64,000 bases of DNA, from positions 186,001-250,000 of the forward strand of contig NZ_NFJD01000001.1 in assembly GCF_002159705.1 (NCBI RefSeq). Reading direction: 5' to 3'. The stretch comes from Elusimicrobium sp. An273 (GTDB lineage Bacteria > Elusimicrobiota > Elusimicrobia > Elusimicrobiales > Elusimicrobiaceae). The notes below the pieces were generated by a model. That model did no database searches. It had not been told where the DNA came from and was given only the letters and a program-made list of their open reading frames with translations. Of the stretch, positions 4,671 through 53,921 are shown piece after piece. Every line of letters begins with the position of its first letter. Within the stretch, counting starts at the first letter, position 1. The position numbers and the translations under genes were made by a program.

Positions 4671-4682
4671 TTTTTTAGTTTA
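4671..4682 (-). promoter_or_regulatory. leaderless-type promoter of the ankyrin gene
   Basis: Read on the minus strand, TAAACT is followed by six A and then the ATG. A transcription start about 7 nt after the -10 box would fall on the start codon itself. No Shine-Dalgarno is present. Confidence 0.5.
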
Positions 4683-8521: not shown

Positions 8522-8539
8522 ATATAAGGTATTATACCA
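8522..8539 (-). promoter_or_regulatory. extended -10 promoter of kdsC operon
   Basis: The minus strand reads TGGTATAAT, an extended -10 (TGN plus consensus TATAAT), ending 9 nt before the kdsC ATG. No Shine-Dalgarno fits between them. Confidence 0.65.
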
Positions 8540-13222: not shown

Positions 13223-13233
13223 TATAATAAAGT
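13223..13233 (+). promoter_or_regulatory. leaderless-type promoter of xerD
   Basis: TATAAT (13223-13228) is followed by only five bases (AAAGT) and then the ATG. The predicted transcription start coincides with the start codon. No Shine-Dalgarno. Confidence 0.6.
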
Positions 13234-14188: not shown

Positions 14189-14206
14189 TGTTAAAATAAA
14201 AGTAGT
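14189..14206 (+). promoter_or_regulatory. extended -10 promoter of leuS
   Basis: TGT followed by TAAAAT (14192-14197) ends 9 nt before the leuS ATG. No Shine-Dalgarno is present, so the leader would be about 3 nt. Confidence 0.5.
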
Positions 14207-16720
14207 ATGAGTATTGATAACTTTCCGCAAATTGACAAGAAACAACAAGACCGCTGGGAAAAAGCCAACCTTTTCGCCAGCCCCAGAATGCCCAAAGGCA
14301 AAAAGTTTTACTGCTTGGATATGTTCCCATATCCGTCGGGCGCCGGCTTGCACGTCGGCCATCCGGAAGGGTATACCGCTTCGGACATTTTGGTACGCTA
14401 TAAACTGATGAACGGCTACGACGTGCTGCACCCCATGGGGTGGGACGCCTTCGGCCTACCTGCGGAAAATTACGCCATTGCCACCGGGGTTCACCCGCGC
14501 ATTACTACTCATAAAAACATCGCCAATTTTAAACGCCAAATCAAATCCATCGGCCTCGCCTACGACTGGAGCCGCGAAATCGACACCACCGACCCGAAGT
14601 ATTATAAATGGACGCAGTGGATTTTTCTGCAGCTTTTCAAAAAAGGCCTCGCGTATGAATCCACCGTGCCGATCAACTGGTGCCCATCGTGCAAAACGGG
14701 GCTTGCCAACGAAGAAGTGTTTAACGGCAAGTGCGAACGCTGCGGCCACGAAATCGAACGCAAGGCCCTGCGCCAGTGGATTTTGCGCATTACCAACTAC
14801 GCCGAAAAACTGCTGGAAGGGTTGGACAAGCTGGACTGGCCCGAAAGCACGCTGACCATGCAGCGCAACTGGATTGGCAAGTCCAACGGGGCGGAAGTCA
14901 AATTCAAGCTGGACGGGCACGACGATATTTTAACCGTATTTACCACCCGCCCGGACACGCTTTTCGGCGCCACGTATATGGTGGTTTCGCCGGAACACCC
15001 GATTTTGAAAAAAATTGTTACGCCCGAGCAAAAAGCCGCGGTGGAACATTACCAGGCCGAAGCCGCCAAAAAAAGCGACTTGGAACGCGGCGACTTAAAT
15101 AAAGACAAAACCGGCGTATTTACCGGCGCCTACGCCATCAACCCGGTAAACGGCAAAAAAATCCCGGTGTGGACGTCCGACTATGTGCTGATGGGCTACG
15201 GCACCGGCGCGATTATGGCCGTGCCGGCGCACGACGAGAGGGACTACGCTTTTGCCAAAAAATTCGGGTTGGATATCATCGAAGTTATCAAAAGCGAACA
15301 AGGCGTGGAAAAAGAAGCCTTTACGGGAGACGGAGAACTCGTCAACTCCGGCTTTTTAAACGGCATGCACGTGCAAGAGTCCAAAGCCGCCATGATTGAC
15401 TGGCTGACGCAGCGCGGCTTGGGCAACGCCAAAACCAGCTATAAACTGCGCGACTGGGTGTTTGCCCGCCAACGCTACTGGGGCGAACCGATCCCCATTG
15501 TGCACTGCCCCAAATGCGGCGTGGTGCCGCTGCCGGAAGACCAGCTGCCGCTGACGCTGCCGGAAGTAGAAAAATTTGAACCCTCGGGCACGGGCGAATC
15601 GCCGCTTTCCACGGTGGAAAGTTGGGTAAACACCACCTGCCCGCACTGCGGCGGCCCGGCCAAACGCGAAACCAACACCATGCCCCAATGGGCCGGCTCC
15701 TGCTGGTATTATCTGCGCTATATGGATCCGCACAACGACAAAGCGCTGGTAGACCCGGAAATTGAAAAAGCCTACGGCCCCGTGGACTGCTACATCGGCG
15801 GTGCGGAACACGCCGTGCTGCATTTATTGTACGCGCGCTTCTGGCACCATGTGCTGTTTGACTTGGGCGTCGTAAGCCACCCGGAACCGTTCCAAAAATT
15901 GCGCCACCAAGGCATGATTTTGGCGTTCTCGTACCGGGATAAAATGGGCGCCTACCACGGCTACGACGAAATTGATTTTAAAGACGGAAAAGCCTTCTTA
16001 AAAACCACCGGGGAGGAACTTTCCCCCATGGTGGAAAAAATGTCCAAATCCAAAAAGAACGTCATCAACCCCGATGAAATTCTTTCCCAGTACGGGGCGG
16101 ATGCTTTCCGCATGTACGAAATGTTTATGGGCCCGTTTGAGGCCAGCAAACCTTGGGACATGAAAGGCATTGAAGGCATTTCCCGCTTTTTAAAGCGCAC
16201 AGCCGCCTGGAGCGAAAGCGTAAAGCTTTTTGAAGGGCCGGATCCGAAAAAGAGCGAAATCCTGAAGAACAAAACCATCGCCAAAGTAAGCGAAGATATT
16301 GAAAATTTCCGTTTCAATACCGCCATTTCGGCACTGATGGTGTTGTTTAACGATATCAGCAAACTGCCGCAAGTAAGCCAAGACACGTTCCAAACGTTCT
16401 TAAAACTCTTACACCCGTTTGCCCCGCACTTAACCGAAGAAATCTGGCAGCAAAAAGGCTACGAAGGATTTGTGGTTAAATCCGCCTGGCCGAAGGTCAA
16501 CCCGGATCTGCTGCAGGACGATTCCGTAGAAATCGGCGTGCAGGTAAACGGCAAAGTGCGCGACCGAATTTCCGTGCCGGCAAACGCTTCGCGCGAAGAA
16601 ATGGAAAAGCTGGCCCGCGCCAGCGCCAAAGTACAGCGCAGCTTGGAAGGATTGGAAATTAAAAAAGTAATTGTCGTCCCCGGCCGCATGGTCAGCTTTG
16701 TGGCCGCCCCCCAAAAATAA
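14207..16720 (+). CDS. leuS: leucyl-tRNA synthetase
   Basis: This 837-aa class I synthetase has the HIGH-type motif HVGH at 49-52 and KMSKS at 611-615. The CP1 editing domain (about 220-410) has a [13 protein letters not shown] motif and [16 protein letters not shown] zinc-binding CPKCG lies before the second half of the active site. All expected bacterial LeuRS blocks are present at normal length. It heads a leuS-lptE-holA cluster, the same order as in E. coli. Confidence 0.98.
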
Positions 16721-18517: not shown

Positions 18518-18529
18518 TACAATTTAAAT
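18518..18529 (+). promoter_or_regulatory. leaderless-type promoter of the DedA gene
   Basis: TACAAT (18518-18523), then six bases, then ATG. No Shine-Dalgarno. Confidence 0.5.
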
Positions 18530-27828: not shown

Positions 27829-27843
27829 ATTTTTATTTTAACA
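27829..27843 (-). promoter_or_regulatory. leaderless-type extended -10 promoter of uvrC
   Basis: The minus strand reads TGT-TAAAAT, then six bases (AAAAAT), then ATG. The expected transcription start is the A of the ATG. Confidence 0.6.
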
Positions 27844-41652: not shown

Positions 41653-44600
41653 TCAGAATTGCACCGTTACGTTGGCCGCCACATTGTAGGCCGTATAATC
41701 TTCGGTTTCCACATACGCGTGGTTGAGCAGTGTAAATCCGCCGCCTACGGTAAAGCGCAGGTTTTGCGAAAGTTCATAATCCAGCGAGGTGCTGAAATCA
41801 AATTTTTTGTAGTTTTCCGTTACTTCCACCGGAGAGCGTTTGTCCGTATACGAAAAAGTGGTGTTCCAAATCACGCGGTTGGTGGCGTTGTACATTTTAT
41901 TGATAAACGGCAGTTTAAAACCGCGCGGGAGGTTGAAGTCCCAGCGGAGGTTCAGGCTGGGGGTAGTTTCGGTACTGCTTTCGCTGATTTGGCCCGCCAC
42001 CAGCCATTTTTCGTGCGACGTGTGAAGCAGTTTGGGCGTAACGCGCATGGAGCCGATGTAAAAAGAAGTCTGGGCCGAAATATCGTTATCCTCAATGCGC
42101 TCCAAACTGGTGCCGGCGCGCAAGTCCGTCTTGTCGGAGGTTTTGCGCGTATAGTTAAGCACCGTGTCAAAATAATTAAACAGCATAAACCGCAAGTCCC
42201 CCCCGTACTGGGTGGTGTATTGTTCGTCCGTTCCCGGGGTGTTTTGCTCCACCCAGCTGTAGCGCAGTTTTAAGTTGGACGAGCTGAACCAGCGGCCGCC
42301 GTAAAAGAATTTTTCCAAGTCGGAAATGGAAAACGTCATATCCGGCAAGGTTAAGCTGGTGGAATCATACAGCGTGCCGGTTTGGTCGTTGGTTTGCAGG
42401 GTGCGGGTAAAGTTGTTAATCAGCGAAATCGTCTTTAACGGGGCGGCGGCGCCTTCCAGGTTGTACTGCGAAAGCGGACTCCAGCGCTGGGTAGAGGTGA
42501 ACGTGTCGCGCAAGGTTAAGCTCTTGCGATAGCCGTATTCCCCCACGTCTTTTAAGGAACTGCGGATCCACAAATCTTTGCGGGAGTCGTAGTCGCTGTC
42601 CACGTCGTACCAGGAGTCCGCGTCCTGGATGCGGTAGCTGGAGGAAATGACAAACGTGTTAAAGAGCTTGCTGTTGGGCAGGATTTCATTTCCGTTTAGC
42701 GTCAGCGAGATACCGCCGTCTGCGTTGCGGTTGATGGTTTTTACTTCTCCCACCCCCACGGTTACCTGCTGCCCGGCGGCGTTAAGCGTTTTGGCCGTCA
42801 GGTTGTTGCTTTCCACGGTACTGATGTTGTAGCTGACGGACGGCGCCAGCCATTTGGTGATTTTCCACGTGCTGTTAAAACCGGTGTTCTGGCTCATGGC
42901 TTTGGGATAGCTGATGTTTTGGGCGGACGTTTCCTGATAGGTAGTGCGGTCTTCCTTGCTTTTGCTTAAACTGTAACTGGGGGTAAAGTTAAAATTATTC
43001 GTCGGCTGGTACGTTACCTTCATGTTCATTTTTTGGGTGTTTTCGTCGGTATTGTAGTAATTGTCGGACTCCAAATGCCGCGTCCGGTCATAATTAATGG
43101 ACGAGTCGGTAATGTGGTACCCGGCCGTAATGTTTTTAAACGTGCCGGCCGAATGCGTCAGCGTGGCGCCGTAGGTGCGGGCGTCGTCCTTGCGTTTCAT
43201 CGCGTCGTATTCCACCTGATCGGTGGTGTATTCCAAGCCGATTTGAGGGAAGTTATCTTTCTTAAAGTCGCCGCGCACGACCGCGCTTTGCCGGTCTACC
43301 TTGCCTTTATCCAACAGGCTGATGGTGTTGTAATCCGTCGTGTCCGTTACCAAGGGGGTTACGGTGCTGGAACGGGTTAAATTGGCCTGCATGGGAAATT
43401 CTTTAATTTTATCCACTTTCAAAAAGTATTCTTCCTGCGTGACTTCCTGATTTTTGGACACGGCAAGCGGCGTTTCAAAATTGCTGTCCTGATACTTATA
43501 CTTGGCCCCCGCACTGCCCCAGCCGTCCAGGTTTACCACCACATCTCCCTTATAGGCCGTGCCTTCCAGCGTAATGGATTCGGCCAAGTGAATTACATTC
43601 AGCCACACTTCGCCCTGGCTGCCCAGTGCGCTTACCTGATCCAGCACCGCCGTGTACGATTTGCCGTTTTCCAGCGTAACGGCATAAGAGCCGTCCGCCT
43701 GCGTGGAAACGGTTTGCACCGTCCCCGCGGAAACCGTAAAATTGGCATCGCCGTACAGCGCCAGCCCCGGCTGCAAAATGCCGCGGGCAAAAAGGGTTTG
43801 CGTGTTATCCTGCTGCGTAAACGTGTACGTATAGCGGCTTTCGGGCTGCACGCCCGTAAACATCAAGCTGACTTCTCTAAAGTTAAGCAATCCGCCCGGC
43901 CCCCGGTGGTGCACGACACGCACATTGTAGGAGGGATCCGATATATTTTCAAACGAGTCGGGCACGCCGTCCATATCCGTATCCACCATCCGCAGGGAAA
44001 TAAGACGCCAGCCGCGGAAATCGGTCGGCACGATGATTTTGTCAAAATTGTTTTCCGTACCCACTTTTAAAAAGAACTCCGTGCCGGGCTGGTTTAACGG
44101 GCGGGCGCCGCCCTGCTCCATGGCGCCGTGCAGCAAAAAGCGGAATTCCCGGTGCTGGGTAAAATCCATACTGGAGAAGTTGCGGTTGGCGTAGCGTTCG
44201 CCCGCCGGATTGTTTTCCGTGCTGTCGTCCCGCACGGGGGAAAGGCCGATGGTATTAAATTTAATGTTCAGGGCCTGATCCAAGGCGTTGGCAGAGCCGG
44301 TGGCCTGTTTATAGTTATTAACCGAGCCGTACAAATAATTAAATACCGTCAGCCCGTCGCCAGTGGTATCGGCAAAGATCGGCTCGTAGTTGGTGTCGTC
44401 CACATTGTTGATGCCCGCCACGGAGAAAACATCCGGATCGGTTTCGTTTTGGGCGTTCCACGCCGTGCCGGACAAAGACACGTTGGCAATTTTAATTTGC
44501 CCTTTTAATTTGCCGGCGCGTTTCATTTCGTCGGTTAATTTAAGCGTAATACGCAGGTGGCGCACGGCCGTCCATTGTTCCTTTTCTTCCGTAGACAATA

Positions 44601-47307
44601 AAAGCGGCATCGTGTAGGTCGTCCACGCGGTGTTGGATGCCGTATTGTTCACCATTCCGTCAATAGACGCCCCCGCAAAACCGAAGTTGCCCTGGGCGGG
44701 CATACTTTCGGCGTCATAGGCGCCGTTGCCGTTTAAATCCTGCGTATCAATGCGCCCGTTGGGCTGGGATTCGGGGTTGTAGACGTTGTTTACAAACGGA
44801 TTATAGCGTTCTTCCGTCCCGTCCGGGTTGGTAAACAGCCAGCCGATATCTTCATTCGGCGCCAGGGTGTTGCGGCAGTAAATGTCTTCGGTCTTGGGAA
44901 CGTTAGTGCCGCATTGGGTATCCATTCCGTTGGAAGAATCGGAGTATTCGGAAATATTACCGAAAGCAAAGTTGACCTGCGGGCCGTTTTCTTCGCCCAG
45001 CATCGTCAGTTCAAAAGAGGTTTTGCTGGACAAATCCATCCCGCTTTGGCTCAGCGGATAGACGATGGAAACCTCGTCGCGCCCTTCCTCGTTTAAAAAC
45101 GGCTGCCCGGTTGTTTGGTCAATGGTGGTGGCCGGAAGGGTGAAATCGTAATTTAACACCAGCACTTGCTGTTTGTCGTTATAATTGGCGATGGAGTGCG
45201 GGTTGATTTCCAGCGAAGGCAAATCCTGCGTGTCCCAATGGATAGAGTTTAAGAAAGCGGGTTTGCCGCTGGGGTTGGAAGCAAAAATCCAGTCCCTGAA
45301 AATGCGCGAACCGGCCACTTGTTCGGTGGCTTCGTTCATGCTGTCCACCATGGCGTAGCCAAACAGGTTTTGATTTTTTTTGCTTTTGGCCACTTCCGCG
45401 CTGAAATCCACCGACAGCGGCTCTGCCAGCCGAATGTCTTTGCCGTTAATATCCGCCCCGTAAACGAGCAAATCCTTGGAATAATTGCCCACCTGCGGAA
45501 CGGTGTTGGGTTTTTCGCCGCTTTCTTTAAGCATGGTGGCGCCCATGATGATTTTGTCAAACAGTTTATAATCCAGCCGCCCGCCCATCACCGAGTTGTT
45601 GGAACTGGAGCCGGTGGTGGTATCGTAGGTAATGTCTATGACGGAATTTTCGGTAATTTCATCCCCTTTATAAAAAGTGATAAAGCCGGAGGTATAGTCA
45701 ATATAATAATCGTTGTTGCGCGTGAGGGTGCGGCCGTTTAATTTGACGGTTTCGGATTCAATCACGATGCCCGACTCGATAAAGTAGGTTTTTACGGTGG
45801 ATTCGTACTGAATTTTAAACGTCAGGTTTTTAGAGGACGTCGGCGTGGCGCCGTAGAGCCCGGTGTCGTTAATGCGGTAGGCCAGGTCAAAAATACCGCT
45901 GTCAAAATCCACGTCAATATACGTGGGATAGGTATAATAGGGGCTGGTAAGCGCCTGGCCGTTGGCGTCTTGCAATTGCAAAATAAAATTGCCTTTTCCG
46001 TTGTCCTGCGTAATTTTTTGCGCGCCGATATTGTAATACGTTTTCAGCTCCAGTTTGTTGGCGGTCTCGGTTACCATGGCGGGGCCGGTTTCAATGGATT
46101 TGTCGTTGGCGGTTTTAATCAGTTTAATGGTGCCGGTTTTCCCCAAGACATTGCTTAACTGGTTGCCGCGGGTGTCGCGGTAATCCACGGCGATAACGCT
46201 CTCCGCCGTAACCGTGCGTTTAAACGTAATGATGCCGCTTGCATAATCCACCGTATAGTCCACGCCGCGCGTTAAAAGCTGCCACTTGGCGGGATATTCC
46301 GTACTGCCCAAAGCGTCGGTGGCAATGCGGTCTATCGGCACGTAATCGGAGGAGGTGGAAGAATCGTTGCTGTAGTAATAAATTTCTTCCGTGCCGGGCG
46401 AGATGCTGCCCATCACGGTGCGCCACTCATCATACGCGGTGCGGTCTACCGGGTAGCGGATGCTGCCGCCGTCGTCAATATACGGGCGGACGTTGCCGCC
46501 GAACGTCAAATCGTAATACGTGCGGCGCAGATAGGAAGTGTCCGCCAGCGAAATAATTTCCGACACGCTGCTGCCGATAAATTGCTTTTGTTTGCTGGAA
46601 CCTTTGGTTTGCGAGCCGATTAAATACAAATTGGCGTTTTTGTGCTGCAAGTGCATTTTGGCGCCGAACAGTTGCTTTTGATAGGCGATAAACTCCGTTT
46701 CCGGCAGGGACAAATTAATATCCCCGAATTCAGCCAGCTGCACCAGTTCCCCCGGTTTGCCGCGGTAAGCCACGGAAATGGTTTTTTCCTCTTCGCGCTG
46801 GTCGTCGTAGTCGATATCCACAAACACGCGCTCCAAAATTTTACCCTGCATTTTAAGCTGCATTTCCTGCTGCATTTCAAACGTGCTGGTGTTGCGTTTA
46901 TTGATGTCGTTATTGGAGTCTTTTTTGTATTTCTGCGCCGCCATTTGGAACCCCAGCACATAGCGCCCGGTTAAAGCGATGCTGGTGCCGTAAAGCGGCA
47001 GGGAAAGAGTGGGATTTAAAAGCGTCAAGTCCGGAATCGGCTCCGGCTCGTTGTCCAGCTTATACGAGCCCTCCACCGAAGTAACCGCCTGGCGCCAAAA
47101 CTCGTTGGTAAATTTAAGCAGCTGGGCGTCGTCCGGCGGGTCTTGAATCGTAAGGGCCTCTTCTTCTTTTTCGGCTTGGTCTTCGGCAAAAATATCGTAT
47201 TGATCGCGGTCTACCAGGGTGTACGGCAGCGATTCGGCGCCGGCCGGAGGGGCGGCGACGAATTGCAAAATAAGCAGCAGGGCCACAGGCAGCCGCAGTA
47301 TTTTCAT
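41653..47307 (-). CDS. giant SprA-like outer-membrane barrel protein
   Basis: This 1884-aa protein has a signal peptide (MKILRLPVALLLILQFVAAP) and ends in VAANVTVQF. A terminal Phe is usual for BAM-inserted barrels. The segment GELVQLAEFGDINLSLPETE followed by QKQLFGAKMHLQHKNANLYL (about 185-225) resembles the SprA_N pattern (GNVSLP...SLFGIKAQLQ). Two copies of a DYxxDYxSGxITF motif (near 352 and 542) also recall SprA, the 36-strand channel of the type IX secretion system. A DTDMDGVPDSFEN calcium-type repeat lies near 1110; the last 500 residues are amphipathic strands. It is about 500 residues shorter than Bacteroidota SprA. It could be a secretion channel or surface barrel; no other T9SS gene is seen here. 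Confidence 0.72.
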   Translation of the reverse strand: MKILRLPVALLLILQFVAAPPAGAESLPYTLVDRDQYDIFAEDQAEKEEEALTIQDPPDDAQLLKFTNEFWRQAVTSVEGSYKLDNEPEPIPDLTLLNPTLSLPLYGTSIALTGRYVLGFQMAAQKYKKDSNNDINKRNTSTFEMQQEMQLKMQGKILERVFVDIDYDDQREEEKTISVAYRGKPGELVQLAEFGDINLSLPETEFIAYQKQLFGAKMHLQHKNANLYLIGSQTKGSSKQKQFIGSSVSEIISLADTSYLRRTYYDLTFGGNVRPYIDDGGSIRYPVDRTAYDEWRTVMGSISPGTEEIYYYSNDSSTSSDYVPIDRIATDALGSTEYPAKWQLLTRGVDYTVDYASGIITFKRTVTAESVIAVDYRDTRGNQLSNVLGKTGTIKLIKTANDKSIETGPAMVTETANKLELKTYYNIGAQKITQDNGKGNFILQLQDANGQALTSPYYTYPTYIDVDFDSGIFDLAYRINDTGLYGATPTSSKNLTFKIQYESTVKTYFIESGIVIESETVKLNGRTLTRNNDYYIDYTSGFITFYKGDEITENSVIDITYDTTTGSSSNNSVMGGRLDYKLFDKIIMGATMLKESGEKPNTVPQVGNYSKDLLVYGADINGKDIRLAEPLSVDFSAEVAKSKKNQNLFGYAMVDSMNEATEQVAGSRIFRDWIFASNPSGKPAFLNSIHWDTQDLPSLEINPHSIANYNDKQQVLVLNYDFTLPATTIDQTTGQPFLNEEGRDEVSIVYPLSQSGMDLSSKTSFELTMLGEENGPQVNFAFGNISEYSDSSNGMDTQCGTNVPKTEDIYCRNTLAPNEDIGWLFTNPDGTEERYNPFVNNVYNPESQPNGRIDTQDLNGNGAYDAESMPAQGNFGFAGASIDGMVNNTASNTAWTTYTMPLLLSTEEKEQWTAVRHLRITLKLTDEMKRAGKLKGQIKIANVSLSGTAWNAQNETDPDVFSVAGINNVDDTNYEPIFADTTGDGLTVFNYLYGSVNNYKQATGSANALDQALNIKFNTIGLSPVRDDSTENNPAGERYANRNFSSMDFTQHREFRFLLHGAMEQGGARPLNQPGTEFFLKVGTENNFDKIIVPTDFRGWRLISLRMVDTDMDGVPDSFENISDPSYNVRVVHHRGPGGLLNFREVSLMFTGVQPESRYTYTFTQQDNTQTLFARGILQPGLALYGDANFTVSAGTVQTVSTQADGSYAVTLENGKSYTAVLDQVSALGSQGEVWLNVIHLAESITLEGTAYKGDVVVNLDGWGSAGAKYKYQDSNFETPLAVSKNQEVTQEEYFLKVDKIKEFPMQANLTRSSTVTPLVTDTTDYNTISLLDKGKVDRQSAVVRGDFKKDNFPQIGLEYTTDQVEYDAMKRKDDARTYGATLTHSAGTFKNITAGYHITDSSINYDRTRHLESDNYYNTDENTQKMNMKVTYQPTNNFNFTPSYSLSKSKEDRTTYQETSAQNISYPKAMSQNTGFNSTWKITKWLAPSVSYNISTVESNNLTAKTLNAAGQQVTVGVGEVKTINRNADGGISLTLNGNEILPNSKLFNTFVISSSYRIQDADSWYDVDSDYDSRKDLWIRSSLKDVGEYGYRKSLTLRDTFTSTQRWSPLSQYNLEGAAAPLKTISLINNFTRTLQTNDQTGTLYDSTSLTLPDMTFSISDLEKFFYGGRWFSSSNLKLRYSWVEQNTPGTDEQYTTQYGGDLRFMLFNYFDTVLNYTRKTSDKTDLRAGTSLERIEDNDISAQTSFYIGSMRVTPKLLHTSHEKWLVAGQISESSTETTPSLNLRWDFNLPRGFKLPFINKMYNATNRVIWNTTFSYTDKRSPVEVTENYKKFDFSTSLDYELSQNLRFTVGGGFTLLNHAYVETEDYTAYNVAANVTVQF

Positions 47308-47433: not shown

Positions 47434-48606
47434 TTAAGAAATACCGACGGAAACCGTCCGATCCACAAACCGATGTTTTACGATTTCAAATTCCAAAAAA
47501 TCGCCATGCTGCACGTCGGGAAACAACCACTCCGCATGTTCCGGGTCAAACCGGCCGTTATATTTGGGCAGATATACTTTGTGCAGCAGCGTGCCGCCTT
47601 GGTCAAAGTGATACACCCAGCCGATCGTTTCTTCCGCTTGGATTTGCAGCACGTCCCGGCCATACACCTTATACGTAAGCGGCGCCGGCAGTTTGCCTTG
47701 TTCGTAGCTTTCCAACAGCCACTCCAGCGCTTGGCGGGCATTGACCGCAAACACCTGCCCTTGCTCCGGGTCATGGCCGCTGTAAATACCGGCCACTTGC
47801 CCTTGCGCATTTAAAACGGGACTGCCGCACAAACCGTTAAATTCTTCCGATACGTCCGGGCTGTCCATCACCATTTTAATTCCTTGCGCCAGCGTTACTT
47901 TTAACTCATCTATTCGTGCAAATCCTTCGCAGGCATACGGGCTGCCCCACACCACCAGTTCGCTGCCTTTCTCCGGCAAAGAGGGGGCTATCGTTAGCGG
48001 CCGCACATACGCTTGGGCCTCTTGCGGCAAAGCGATGATGGCTGCGTCCGGCGCATTAATGCCGAACGAGCCCGCCGCATTGACAATTAACCCGTTATAC
48101 ACAACCGGGGCCCCTTTTTCCGGATACGTCCGCACCGCCACGGTATTTCCTTTCCGCCCCACCACATGATACGATACCACCGCATACAATCGCCCCGAAC
48201 GCGACTGTACCACAAATCCGCTTCCCATCAGGTCTCCACTGGCTCTGCCCACCACTTCCACTAACGAGGCGCGGATATGCTTTTCGGTCTGGGCCAAAGA
48301 AGTTGTTTCGGCAGGAGCCTGCAGGCCGCCGAGGGTTTGGCGGGCAATCGTCCGCTGCAGTGGGCTGAAATCAGCCACCTCCTGTTCGTTTCGGACGGGC
48401 GGTTTAACGACGGCGGTTTTGGCCGTTTGAAAAGCGCTTTGCGCCGCCAAAGAAGCCGGGGGAATATAGCGAAGATTAAGCAGGATATTTTTTTCTATTT
48501 TGGCGGGAGCCAGCCCGCCGCGCAGGAAATTCTTAGCCGGAAGTTTCTGGGCTGCTGCAAAGGGGACTGTCAGCAAGCAAGATAATACGAAAAGAAACGC
48601 TCTCAT
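47434..48606 (-). CDS. secreted trypsin-fold protease with Cys at the nucleophile position
   Basis: This 390-aa protein has a signal peptide (MRAFLFVLSCLLTVPFAAA), an approximately 100-residue spacer, and a chymotrypsin/HtrA-like domain. The triad positions are His147 (VVSYHVVGRKG), Asp187 (NAPDAAIIALP) and Cys260 in NGLCGSPVLNAQGQVAGI, where S1 proteases have GNSGGP. A Cys nucleophile is known from viral 3C proteases; it could also mean an inactive or differently active enzyme. The C-terminal 100 residues form a further domain without recognised motifs. The ATG at 48606 lies 6 nt after TATAAT with no Shine-Dalgarno. Confidence 0.82.
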   Translation of the reverse strand: MRAFLFVLSCLLTVPFAAAQKLPAKNFLRGGLAPAKIEKNILLNLRYIPPASLAAQSAFQTAKTAVVKPPVRNEQEVADFSPLQRTIARQTLGGLQAPAETTSLAQTEKHIRASLVEVVGRASGDLMGSGFVVQSRSGRLYAVVSYHVVGRKGNTVAVRTYPEKGAPVVYNGLIVNAAGSFGINAPDAAIIALPQEAQAYVRPLTIAPSLPEKGSELVVWGSPYACEGFARIDELKVTLAQGIKMVMDSPDVSEEFNGLCGSPVLNAQGQVAGIYSGHDPEQGQVFAVNARQALEWLLESYEQGKLPAPLTYKVYGRDVLQIQAEETIGWVYHFDQGGTLLHKVYLPKYNGRFDPEHAEWLFPDVQHGDFLEFEIVKHRFVDRTVSVGIS

Positions 48607-48618
48607 ATCTATATTATA
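48607..48618 (-). promoter_or_regulatory. leaderless-type promoter of the secreted protease
   Basis: On the minus strand, consensus TATAAT is followed by ATAGAT and then ATG, so the predicted transcript starts at the initiation codon. Confidence 0.65.
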
Positions 48619-48715
48619 TCCGCTGCATCCGGCGGCCGCCAGAGCCAAAAGGCCTATAAAAGCGCTGGGTCTTGCCTCTCTTCAGAGATTTCTCCTGCGG
48701 GCGGGTTTGATATTT

Positions 48716-48731
48716 TGTTAGAATAATATAT
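48716..48731 (+). promoter_or_regulatory. leaderless-type extended -10 promoter of lptF-lptG
   Basis: TGT-TAGAAT (48716-48724), then seven bases, then ATG. No Shine-Dalgarno. It is divergent from the protease promoter about 100 bp away. Confidence 0.6.
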
Positions 48732-49826
48732 ATGCGCGTCAGCATTTTTACCAAATACATTGCAAAAAGTCTCCTTACGTTTTTTATAGGCGTATTGGGA
48801 GTGCTGACGTTTGTTATTTTTATGAACCAGTTCATCCGTATCCTGGATATGGCCATGACGTACGGCACCAGTTTCGGGTGGATTGTATCTTCTCTTCTTA
48901 ACGTGCTGCCCAATGTGTTTTGCTTAAGCGCGCCGATGGCCTTTCAGATTGCCATTTTGCTGACGCTGACCAATATGAGCGAACACGGCGAACTTATTGC
49001 CTTGCGCGCGGCGGGATTTTCGTTTAAAGAGATTATCCGGCCGCTTTTTATTTGCGCCCTGGGGCTGACGGTGGTAATGTTTGTCATGCAAAATTGGCTG
49101 ACTCCGCGCAGCTACAAACGCCTCTTAGACCGCCGCAGCGAAGCCCGCAGTAAAATTACCAAAGTAAATTTGGAACCCAAAACATTCTTAAATTTAGGCG
49201 AATGGGATTTGTATTTGGAAAGCTTGGACAAAGACACGGATGTCGCCCGGCAAATTCATCTGATTAAAAAAGAAGATAACGGCGCCCTGAGCACCAAAGT
49301 AAACGCTTCTTCCGGCAAAGTGATTTTAACCCATACGGCCATCGGCCTGCAGCTCAAAGACGGGCAAATGCAGCGCCTGGACGACAAAGATCCTTCCTCT
49401 TTTATCGCCGCCAATTTTGACGAATACATTATGAGCATTTCCCTCTTAAAGGCCCAATACCGCCGTTTGCGCGTAGGGGAAATGTCCACCACCAAACTGC
49501 TTAGACGCATGCGCCAAATGCCTTTAGATCCCGAAACCATCAACGAATACCGCACCGAAATCAGCATGCGCAACGTACTCGCTTTCTCCCCGATTGTATT
49601 GCTGTTTGTCAGCTGTCCGATCGGATTCTCCTTCGGCAAAAGAACCAATAAGGGCTGGGGAATGCTCTTTAGCGTGATTATCATTTTTACGTTCTATTTA
49701 TTAATGACGCTGGGCCTTTCTTTAGGGAAAAAATACGGATGGATTGCCTACCCCGGCCCGTGGCTGCCGATTATAGCCGGCATTTTTGCGGCCCGTTACC
49801 TATGGAAAAAGAGGTTAAACATTTAA
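48732..49826 (+). CDS. lptF: LPS export permease LptF
   Basis: This 364-aa YjgP/YjgQ-family permease has three N-terminal membrane helices, a periplasmic jellyroll-like domain (about 130-260) and three C-terminal helices. FTKYIAKSLLTFFIGVLGVL and VLPNVFCLSAPMAFQIAILL are typical. With LptG and LptB it extracts LPS from the inner membrane. It is the first of a two-gene operon and starts without a Shine-Dalgarno. LptF/LptG assignment follows order only. Confidence 0.9.
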   Translation: MRVSIFTKYIAKSLLTFFIGVLGVLTFVIFMNQFIRILDMAMTYGTSFGWIVSSLLNVLPNVFCLSAPMAFQIAILLTLTNMSEHGELIALRAAGFSFKEIIRPLFICALGLTVVMFVMQNWLTPRSYKRLLDRRSEARSKITKVNLEPKTFLNLGEWDLYLESLDKDTDVARQIHLIKKEDNGALSTKVNASSGKVILTHTAIGLQLKDGQMQRLDDKDPSSFIAANFDEYIMSISLLKAQYRRLRVGEMSTTKLLRRMRQMPLDPETINEYRTEISMRNVLAFSPIVLLFVSCPIGFSFGKRTNKGWGMLFSVIIIFTFYLLMTLGLSLGKKYGWIAYPGPWLPIIAGIFAARYLWKKRLNI

Positions 49827-52756: not shown

Positions 52757-52883
52757 ACATTCTCCCGTTTTTATGTTGGTAAATTCTTTTGTGCACAATT
52801 TCCGTTCCTTCTTTATAACAAAATTTCCGGCCCGTTTATTTCAGGCGGACTCCCCTCGCCGGCAATCCGCCCGCTAAAACCAG

Positions 52884-53227
52884 TGGAGGTGGGGGGATTC
52901 GCACCCCCGTCCGAACATCTTCTCCAACCGGGCGCTACAAGTTTAGCTTCGCTTTTGTAACCGCCGGCTAAGCGCGAAGCGGCACGCCTGCGGTTTGGTT
53001 CGTGGGTCTTAGGCAAAGCCGGACGAACCGCGCCCGCTTTGCCGCATTCCATATAATAACCGTGATCCCTTAGCGTATGGAAGACACCAAAGGCACGGTG
53101 GGACTAAGCGTTAGCCCAAGCGACTTGATTGTCGTTAGTTATTTTTTTGGCCCTATTTTAGCCGGCCTGGCCAACCGGCACTTGCTCCCGGGCGGCAACA
53201 GATACCCGTCGAATCTATTACACCCCC
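52884..53227 (-). ncRNA. ssrA: transfer-messenger RNA (tmRNA)
   Basis: On the minus strand the 5' end GGGGGTG pairs with CACCTCC at the 3' end (7-bp acceptor stem with one G-U), followed by discriminator A (52884). The CCA is not encoded. The 5' part has the tmRNA signature GATTCGACGGG. The 3' part has a T-arm GGGGG-TGCGAAT-CCCCC. The 344-nt length is normal. tmRNA with SmpB rescues stalled ribosomes and tags the products for Clp-type proteases. The tag frame is listed separately. Confidence 0.95.
53104..53151 (-). other. predicted tmRNA tag-peptide frame
   Basis: After AAATAG (compare AAATAGTC before the E. coli resume codon), the frame GCC AAA AAA ATA ... GCT TAG encodes AKKITNDNQVAWANA and a stop. 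NDN is a familiar tag core. The end WANA departs from the usual ALAA-like degron. The resume codon is inferred; other frames stop early. Confidence 0.6.
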
Positions 53228-53910: not shown

Positions 53911-53921
53911 TATAAAAAGCT
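53911..53921 (+). promoter_or_regulatory. leaderless-type promoter of psd
   Basis: TATAAA (53911-53916), five bases, then ATG. No Shine-Dalgarno. Confidence 0.5.

What the first reader, a model, noticed from the sequence alone, without database searches (positions are those of the whole stretch)
48607..48731. Recurrent leaderless gene starts: -10 box 5-7 nt before ATG and no Shine-Dalgarno
Seven genes share the same layout: a TANAAT-like hexamer, 5-7 bases, then ATG. They are the ankyrin gene (4671-4682), xerD (13223), dedA (18518), uvrC (27835-27840), the secreted protease (48613-48618), lptF (48719) and psd (53911). kdsC and leuS are close (9 nt), recG and the NYN gene looser. Transcription normally starts about 7 nt after the -10, that is, on the ATG. 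Other genes here, such as rpsT and clpC, have normal leaders with Shine-Dalgarno sites, so both modes coexist. Several leaderless starts also have a TGN extension. Leaderless mRNA is well known in actinobacteria, Deinococcus and archaea; frequent use in this lineage would be worth reporting.
Basis: partly seen in the sequence, partly recalled or inferred. Interest (0 to 1): 0.62.

Follow-up and report, generated by a model that had tools for sequence, protein, structure and literature searches.

The report
Leaderless gene starts in Elusimicrobia
In this gut bacterium and most sampled members of its class, many genes have a promoter placed so that the messenger RNA should begin right at the start codon, leaving no ribosome-binding site; this start mode is known in other bacteria but seems little documented in this group.

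Summary
The window belongs to a 1.5-Mb Elusimicrobiaceae genome. A -10 box (TANNNT, at least 5/6 of TATAAT) lies exactly 6 nt before a candidate ATG in 99 of 1318 genes (31 at 7 nt, 15 at 8 nt; background 16 +/- 4; only 5 at 5 nt), as expected if transcription starts on the A of the ATG. A same-genus genome (median 72% protein identity) keeps the layout in 63 of 82 orthologues, against 41 of 157 at decoy spacings. Of 214 conserved promoters, 51 lie 6-8 nt from the start and 152 at 15 nt or more, with a trough between. The close set has no Shine-Dalgarno site (0/51 vs 78/152), only ATG starts and the same promoter consensus; it avoids genes with highly adapted codons. TATAAT-N6-ATG beats a spacing control in 185 of 189 sampled genomes of the class, only weakly elsewhere in the phylum. 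Of the seven genes, dedA, uvrC, lptF and the protease fit strictly; xerD probably; ankyrin is weak; psd fails. No 5' ends were mapped. Known phenomenon, apparently undocumented lineage.

The parts
48613..48618 (-). -10 box TATAAT of the trypsin-like secreted protease gene, 6 nt before its ATG
   Evidence: strict hit
47434..48606 (-). protease gene (Pfam Trypsin_2); predicted leaderless start ATG at 48606, which opens a signal-peptide-like N terminus
   Evidence: Pfam; N terminus read from the sequence
48719..48724 (+). -10 box TAGAAT of lptF, 7 nt before its ATG
   Evidence: 6-9 nt layout in 20 of 29 class genomes (read)
48732..49826 (+). lptF (Pfam LptF_LptG), predicted leaderless or 1-nt leader
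48607..48731 (.). 125-bp intergenic region between two divergent predicted leaderless starts (protease and lptF)
18518..18523 (+). -10 box TACAAT of dedA (VTT domain), 6 nt before ATG 18530
   Evidence: kept in 3 of 4 relatives
27835..27840 (-). -10 box TAAAAT of uvrC, 6 nt before ATG 27828
   Evidence: kept in G019
13223..13228 (+). -10 box TATAAT of xerD, 5 nt before ATG 13234; 6 nt in two relatives, so probably leaderless
4677..4682 (-). weak -10-like TAAACT (4/6), 6 nt before the ankyrin-repeat gene ATG 4670; unconfirmed
14192..14197 (+). -10 box TAAAAT of leuS, 9 nt before ATG 14207; same spacing in four relatives; ultrashort (about 3 nt) leader
8531..8536 (-). -10 box TATAAT of the kdsC-like HAD hydrolase gene, 9 nt before ATG 8521; same spacing in G019
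53911..53916 (+).

Best explanation
A housekeeping (sigma-70-type) promoter with an extended -10 element (consensus about AAWWTGnTATAATA, weak -35) is placed so that RNA polymerase, which initiates about 7 nt after the -10 box, starts on or within 0-2 nt of the A of the ATG. The mRNA then has no leader and no Shine-Dalgarno site, and ribosomes must recognise the 5'-terminal AUG directly (in other bacteria: 70S, or 30S preloaded with initiator tRNA with the help of IF2). Such genes coexist with Shine-Dalgarno genes served by the same promoter type at 15 nt or more. They make up about a quarter of clearly conserved promoters and roughly 7-10% of genes, mostly of low to moderate predicted expression. 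Shown here: position, conservation, Shine-Dalgarno absence, coding signature from the ATG, spread in the class. Inferred: the 5' end, the sigma factor and the ribosome pathway.
For: Peak at 6 nt with a one-sided edge. 63/82 orthologues keep it vs 41/157 at decoys. Bimodal spacing of 214 conserved -10s: 51 at 6-8, 11 at 9-14, 152 at 15 or more. Shine-Dalgarno 0/51 vs 78/152; ATG 51/51 vs 134/152; T at -1 in 48/51 vs 100/152. Third-codon-position excess of differences begins right after the ATG and is absent upstream. Only 2/99 have an in-frame downstream start with a Shine-Dalgarno site. Same consensus for both promoter sets. N6 beats N12 in 185/189 class genomes and N5 in 47/51.
Against: No transcript 5' ends exist in this data set. 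Gene starts were called by my own simple caller; comparative and coding-only starts agree in only 492 of 841. The looser TANNNT motif is enriched at 6 nt but not at 7-8 nt. -35 boxes are hardly better than in controls (26% vs 22% with 4/6 or more). xerD sits at 5 nt. 5'-end folding energy does not differ from leadered genes (p = 0.26). Four class genomes do not exceed the N12 control and families f4, f9 and f10 show little or no signal. In 18 of the 51 conserved cases the spacing differs between the two genomes.
Confidence: 0.92

Rival explanations
1. The -10 boxes are real but drive transcripts that are translated from a further downstream, Shine-Dalgarno-bearing start; the nearby ATG is incidental.
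For: Start calling is uncertain for some genes; 2 of 99 have an in-frame downstream start with a Shine-Dalgarno site; one exact site proved to be an out-of-frame ATG 8 nt before the real start.
Against: Protein-coding conservation starts right at the ATG; the orthologue keeps ATG and spacing; 97 of 99 have no such downstream start.
Confidence: 0.03
2. The AT-rich hexamer is a translation-initiation context (as in Bacteroidetes, which lack Shine-Dalgarno sites), not a promoter, and true transcription starts lie upstream.
For: Bases around the start are A-rich in both gene sets.
Against: The motif is a promoter consensus with TGn extension, shared with leadered promoters; the peak is one base wide rather than a general AT bias; Shine-Dalgarno use and the anti-Shine-Dalgarno end of 16S rRNA are intact; the set is mostly at the head of transcription units (114 of 130).
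Confidence: 0.04
3. Chance or base composition.
Against: 200 shuffles, spacing controls N5 and N12, 294 phylum genomes, orthologue conservation.
Confidence: 0.01

Closest known systems
TA-led (leaderless) genes in bacteria, Zheng et al. 2011 (PMC3160421; passages, section 7 and Table 2 read)
   Same: TANNNT about 12 bp upstream of the start, no Shine-Dalgarno site, coexistence with Shine-Dalgarno genes, TG extension in some groups; same kind of computational test
   Different: Elusimicrobia is not named in the main text (0 hits); its 'Other Bacteria' row (8 of 20 genomes) is unresolved and the supplement was not read
Mycobacterium tuberculosis leaderless transcriptome (PMC3898074 passages; PMC4633059 abstract)
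   Same: About a quarter of genes with a primary start site are leaderless; depleted among growth genes and ribosomal proteins; lower mRNA level
   Different: ATG and GTG frequencies are similar between leaderless and leadered genes in M. tuberculosis, here 51/51 ATG; 7 of 14 tRNA synthetase genes with a primary start site are leaderless there, whereas here 4 of 30 sampled leadered genes are tRNA synthetases and none of the 45 leaderless genes scanned had one as best family
Lactococcus-Streptococcus leaderless genes (PMC3160421)
   Same: TG extension before the -10 (reported for Lactococcus); S. sanguinis behaves as a positive control in my pattern test (47 vs 21)
   Different: Reported average for Firmicutes with such genes is 4.2% (Table 2)

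Membership tests
Leaderless bacterial genes | -10 element centred about 10 nt before the start codon, in excess of chance | tested here: met
Leaderless bacterial genes | No Shine-Dalgarno site | tested here: met
   0 of 51 in both genomes vs 78 and 83 of 152
Leaderless bacterial genes | Translation from that ATG | tested here: met
   coding signature begins at the ATG; inferred from conservation, not proteomics
Leaderless bacterial genes | Transcription start on the start codon | not testable with these tools
   no RNA data; inferred from -10 spacing
Leaderless bacterial genes | Initiation by 70S / 5'-AUG recognition | not testable with these tools
   inferred from literature (PMC10783764 and PMC3898074 passages)
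Sigma-70-type promoters | TTGACA-like -35 at 17 +/- 1 bp | tested here: inconclusive
   weak TTG bias at -35 to -33 in the 6-nt set, but match rate 26% vs 22% in controls
Bacteroidetes-like non-Shine-Dalgarno initiation | Genome-wide absence of Shine-Dalgarno sites | tested here: not met
   Shine-Dalgarno present in 78/152 leadered promoter genes; 16S 3' end intact

The most novel reading that the evidence does not exclude
Leaderless initiation is an old, class-wide trait of Elusimicrobia: a fixed second start mode, held on the same genes across genera (lptF in 20 of 29 sampled class genomes at 6-9 nt), used mainly for low-abundance maintenance genes while Shine-Dalgarno leaders serve highly expressed ones, and strongly reduced in the rest of the phylum. 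The class would then be a further bacterial lineage, besides Actinobacteria and Deinococcus-Thermus, in which promoter position sets the mode of translation for about a quarter of promoters.
Probability: 0.7. Interest if true: 0.55.

Novelty: new member of a known kind. Interest (0 to 1): 0.45.

Why it matters
It adds a poorly studied, mostly uncultured class to the lineages with frequent leaderless genes, with a clear signature: a one-base cliff in promoter spacing, a trough between leaderless and leadered promoters, and gene-level conservation. It also has a practical side: gene finders that expect Shine-Dalgarno sites are likely to misplace these starts and miss small leaderless genes in the many Elusimicrobia metagenome assemblies. 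The contrast within one phylum offers a setting in which gain or loss of the mode can be traced.

Tried and rejected
Rejected: a polycysteine leaderless short ORF at C3:152469 (18 aa, CCCC) looked like the cysteine attenuators I recall from mycobacteria. Reading the place showed an out-of-frame ATG 8 nt before the true start of a signal-peptide protein, and no second case was found in the fetched parts of the two genomes.

Rejected: weaker 5'-end RNA structure in leaderless genes (median -3.90 vs -4.20 kcal/mol, p = 0.26). Rejected: a distinct promoter type for the leaderless set; the consensus is shared. Rejected: psd as a member. Inconclusive: -35 box; S1 protein, where a homologue is present but below the family cut-off.

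Set aside: my first lptF table misread loci on the minus strand; one search replaces it. One search covers 29 of the 30 loci: L250 (G132) was dropped because its match starts at residue 99 at a contig end. My script's automatic label picks the best hexamer within 4-19 nt. The count of 20 of 29 is my own reading of the printed upstream sequences for a TANNNT hexamer of at least 5/6 at 6-9 nt; in four cases (L244, L246, L247, L251) a TAGAAT at 6-7 nt overlaps a further upstream TATAAT. Two of the 20 start with GTG.

Dropped before counts: gene pairs with under 30 nt upstream space (841 to 512 pairs). Of the 51 conserved leaderless genes, 45 were scanned with NCBIfam; 3 split across fetched stretches were not scanned, and dedA, uvrC and lptF were scanned with Pfam only. 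Leadered genes annotated: 30 of 152, from a random draw. Nine of the 60 genomes were left out of the N5/N6 comparison because one search did not cover them.

Literature searches. Searches failed on search-term syntax and were not repeated in that form; the paper (GeneMarkS-2) is not held.

Full report
WHAT WAS GIVEN. The window is G000:C1:186001-250000 of a 1,501,445-bp assembly of 14 contigs. Its LeuS is 93, 87 and 84% identical to those of uncultured Elusimicrobiales, Elusimicrobium sp. and Elusimicrobiaceae metagenome assemblies, so I place it in Elusimicrobiaceae (inference).

GENOME-WIDE TEST. I assembled the fetched stretches (window identical to the genome) and called 1318 genes with a simple codon-pair model that does not use upstream signals. 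At the called starts (1316 usable) the hexamer (TANNNT, at least 5/6 of TATAAT) lies 6 nt before the start in 65 genes, 7 nt in 23, 8 nt in 13, against 3-20 at the other distances up to 45. Allowing any in-frame candidate ATG near the start: 99, 31 and 15, background 16.3 +/- 4.3 (spacings 12-49), and only 5 at 5 nt. The excess over background for 6-8 nt is 96 genes, about 7% of 1318; the raw count at 6-7 nt is 130, about 10%. The 130 are mostly heads of transcription units (114). At comparative starts, 200 dinucleotide shuffles give 4.2 +/- 2.1 at 6 nt against 44 observed, and 4.3 at 5 nt against 0 observed. The looser TANNNT is enriched only at 6 nt. The cliff between 5 and 6 nt is what an initiation point 7 nt after the -10 box (recalled textbook spacing) would give: closer, and the A of AUG would be lost.

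COMPARATIVE TEST. G019, another genome of the genus (1.16 Mb fetched), shares 844 reciprocal best hits, median 71.7% identity. Of 144 genes with the hexamer at 6-8 nt, 82 have an orthologue and 63 of these have it at 6-8 nt too; five decoy spacing triplets give 4/22, 10/33, 10/38, 11/35 and 6/29, pooled 41/157, Fisher p = 6e-14. In 512 orthologue pairs with room upstream, 214 have an aligned, conserved -10. The one nearest the start lies at 6-8 nt in 51, 9-14 nt in 11, and 15 nt or more in 152. The spacing is identical in both genomes in 33/51 of the close set, against 7/24 at 15-22 nt and 20/152 overall for the far set; short distances are partly favoured by alignment, so I weigh this lightly.

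ANATOMY. Close and far promoters share one consensus, about AAWWTGnTATAATA. The close set has no Shine-Dalgarno word in either genome (0/51; far set 78/152 and 83/152), only ATG starts (51/51 vs 134/152) and T before the ATG in 48/51 vs 100/152. Differences between orthologues pile up at third codon positions directly after the ATG (139/100/247) and show no such pattern upstream (321/350/305), so translation most likely begins there. The 16S rRNA ends in an intact anti-Shine-Dalgarno sequence, so both modes coexist. -35 matches are hardly above controls (26% vs 22%).

WHICH GENES. Against codon usage of a ribosomal-protein run (8 genes, recognised by eye), 0 of 51 leaderless and 26 of 152 leadered genes fall in the top decile (p = 4e-4); for all 6-7-nt genes 1 of 130 vs 70 of 601 other unit heads (p = 1e-5). 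NCBIfam best families (some below curated cut-offs) among 45 of the 51 include MutS, RuvA, RNase HII, MiaA, TilS, MnmE, Tgt, RsmI, RbfA, Era, SmpB, peptide deformylase, ClpP, DapF, guanylate kinase and LolC/E-like; uvrC, lptF and dedA come from the window. Thirty sampled leadered genes include four tRNA synthetases, phosphoglycerate kinase, PTS enzyme I, glutamate synthase and DnaB. This is a contrast by eye, not an enrichment test.

CLASS AND PHYLUM. Exact TATAAT-N6-ATG against TATAAT-N12-ATG in 294 phylum genomes, both strands, sums by kinship: own genus 2680 vs 668 (58 genomes); rest of family 1117 vs 406 (21); rest of order 2259 vs 906 (46); rest of class 1453 vs 452 (64); rest of phylum 4335 vs 3704 (105). 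N6 exceeds N12 in 185 of 189 class genomes and in 77 of 105 others, so a weak signal may persist outside the class. Within the class, families f4, f9 and f10 show little or none (103 vs 90, 9 vs 14, 2 vs 4) and f7 the most (934 vs 177). N6 also beats N5 in 47 of 51 class genomes, 1587 vs 607. Twenty-seven named genomes from outside the phylum give, added by hand vs 573; S. sanguinis, from a clade with published leaderless genes, gives 47 vs 21, and Lentilactobacillus, near a group reported without, 28 vs 34. A Margulisiibacteriota assembly (41 vs 13) and one Kiritimatiellae assembly (25 vs 6) also stand out.

THE PLACE ITSELF. 48607-48731 is a 125-bp divergent spacer with two predicted leaderless starts: protease (TATAAT, 6 nt) and lptF (TAGAAT, 7 nt). 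In 29 class genomes of 23 genera (own genus included, the window's genome not), lptF has a -10 at 6-9 nt in 20 (read) and a Shine-Dalgarno word in 1. leuS keeps TAAAAT at 9 nt in the window and all four relatives examined, and kdsC TATAAT at 9 nt in G019: conserved leaders of about 3 nt, which belong to the tail of the same class. Of 49 exact N6 sites in the genome, 35 are at called gene starts, 10 intergenic (some with plausible uncalled small genes), 4 within genes.

LITERATURE. Zheng et al. 2011 (PMC3160421; passages, section 7, Table 2) made the same kind of test on 953 bacterial genomes and found leaderless genes in 207; Elusimicrobia is not named in the main text, and its supplement was not read, so a prior computational hit for E. 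minutum is possible. M. tuberculosis work (PMC3898074, passages) reports 26% leaderless among genes with a primary start site, depletion among growth genes, and lower mRNA levels: the same trend as here. StartLink (PMC9581028, passages) cites 21.6% of bacterial species as predicted to use leaderless transcription. PMC5397173 (passages) covers 14 bacterial phyla and does not mention Elusimicrobia (0 hits). PMC10783764 (passages) was found to mention Elusimicrobia only in a table of anti-Shine-Dalgarno types. 'leaderless' with 'elusimicrobi' occurs in 2 papers of the library: the one just named and PMC7448276 (listing only). I therefore call it a known phenomenon in a lineage where I found no report (searches).

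VERDICT. Leaderless or near-leaderless starts are a genuine, conserved, class-wide feature; the 5' ends and the ribosomal pathway remain inferred.

Noticed in passing
G315 (genome of L132, Margulisiibacteriota) and G302 (genome of L093, Kiritimatiellae RGIG5952): TATAAT-N6-ATG is clearly above the N12 spacing control (41 vs 13 and 25 vs 6), suggesting frequent leaderless starts in these lineages too.
   Followed up: no
L027:9174 (G000:C1:409174, +) and L058:14358 (G000:C3:194358, -): Exact TATAAT-N6-ATG sites opening uncalled small ORFs of 50 aa (ribbon-helix-helix-like by eye) and 48 aa (cysteine-rich): likely small leaderless genes that my caller missed.
   Followed up: partly
window 52881-53227: tmRNA gene on the minus strand by Rfam (131.6 bits) that ARAGORN did not report.
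   Followed up: no
window 14192-14207 and L082-L084: leuS keeps a -10 box at exactly 9 nt from its ATG in the window and four relatives: a conserved leader of about 3 nt, too short for a Shine-Dalgarno site.
   Followed up: partly
window 41653-47307: Very large ORF (1884 aa, minus strand) next to the protease gene; not examined.
   Followed up: no
class families f4, f9, f10: A few families of the class lack the N6 signal; possible secondary losses of leaderless starts.
   Followed up: no
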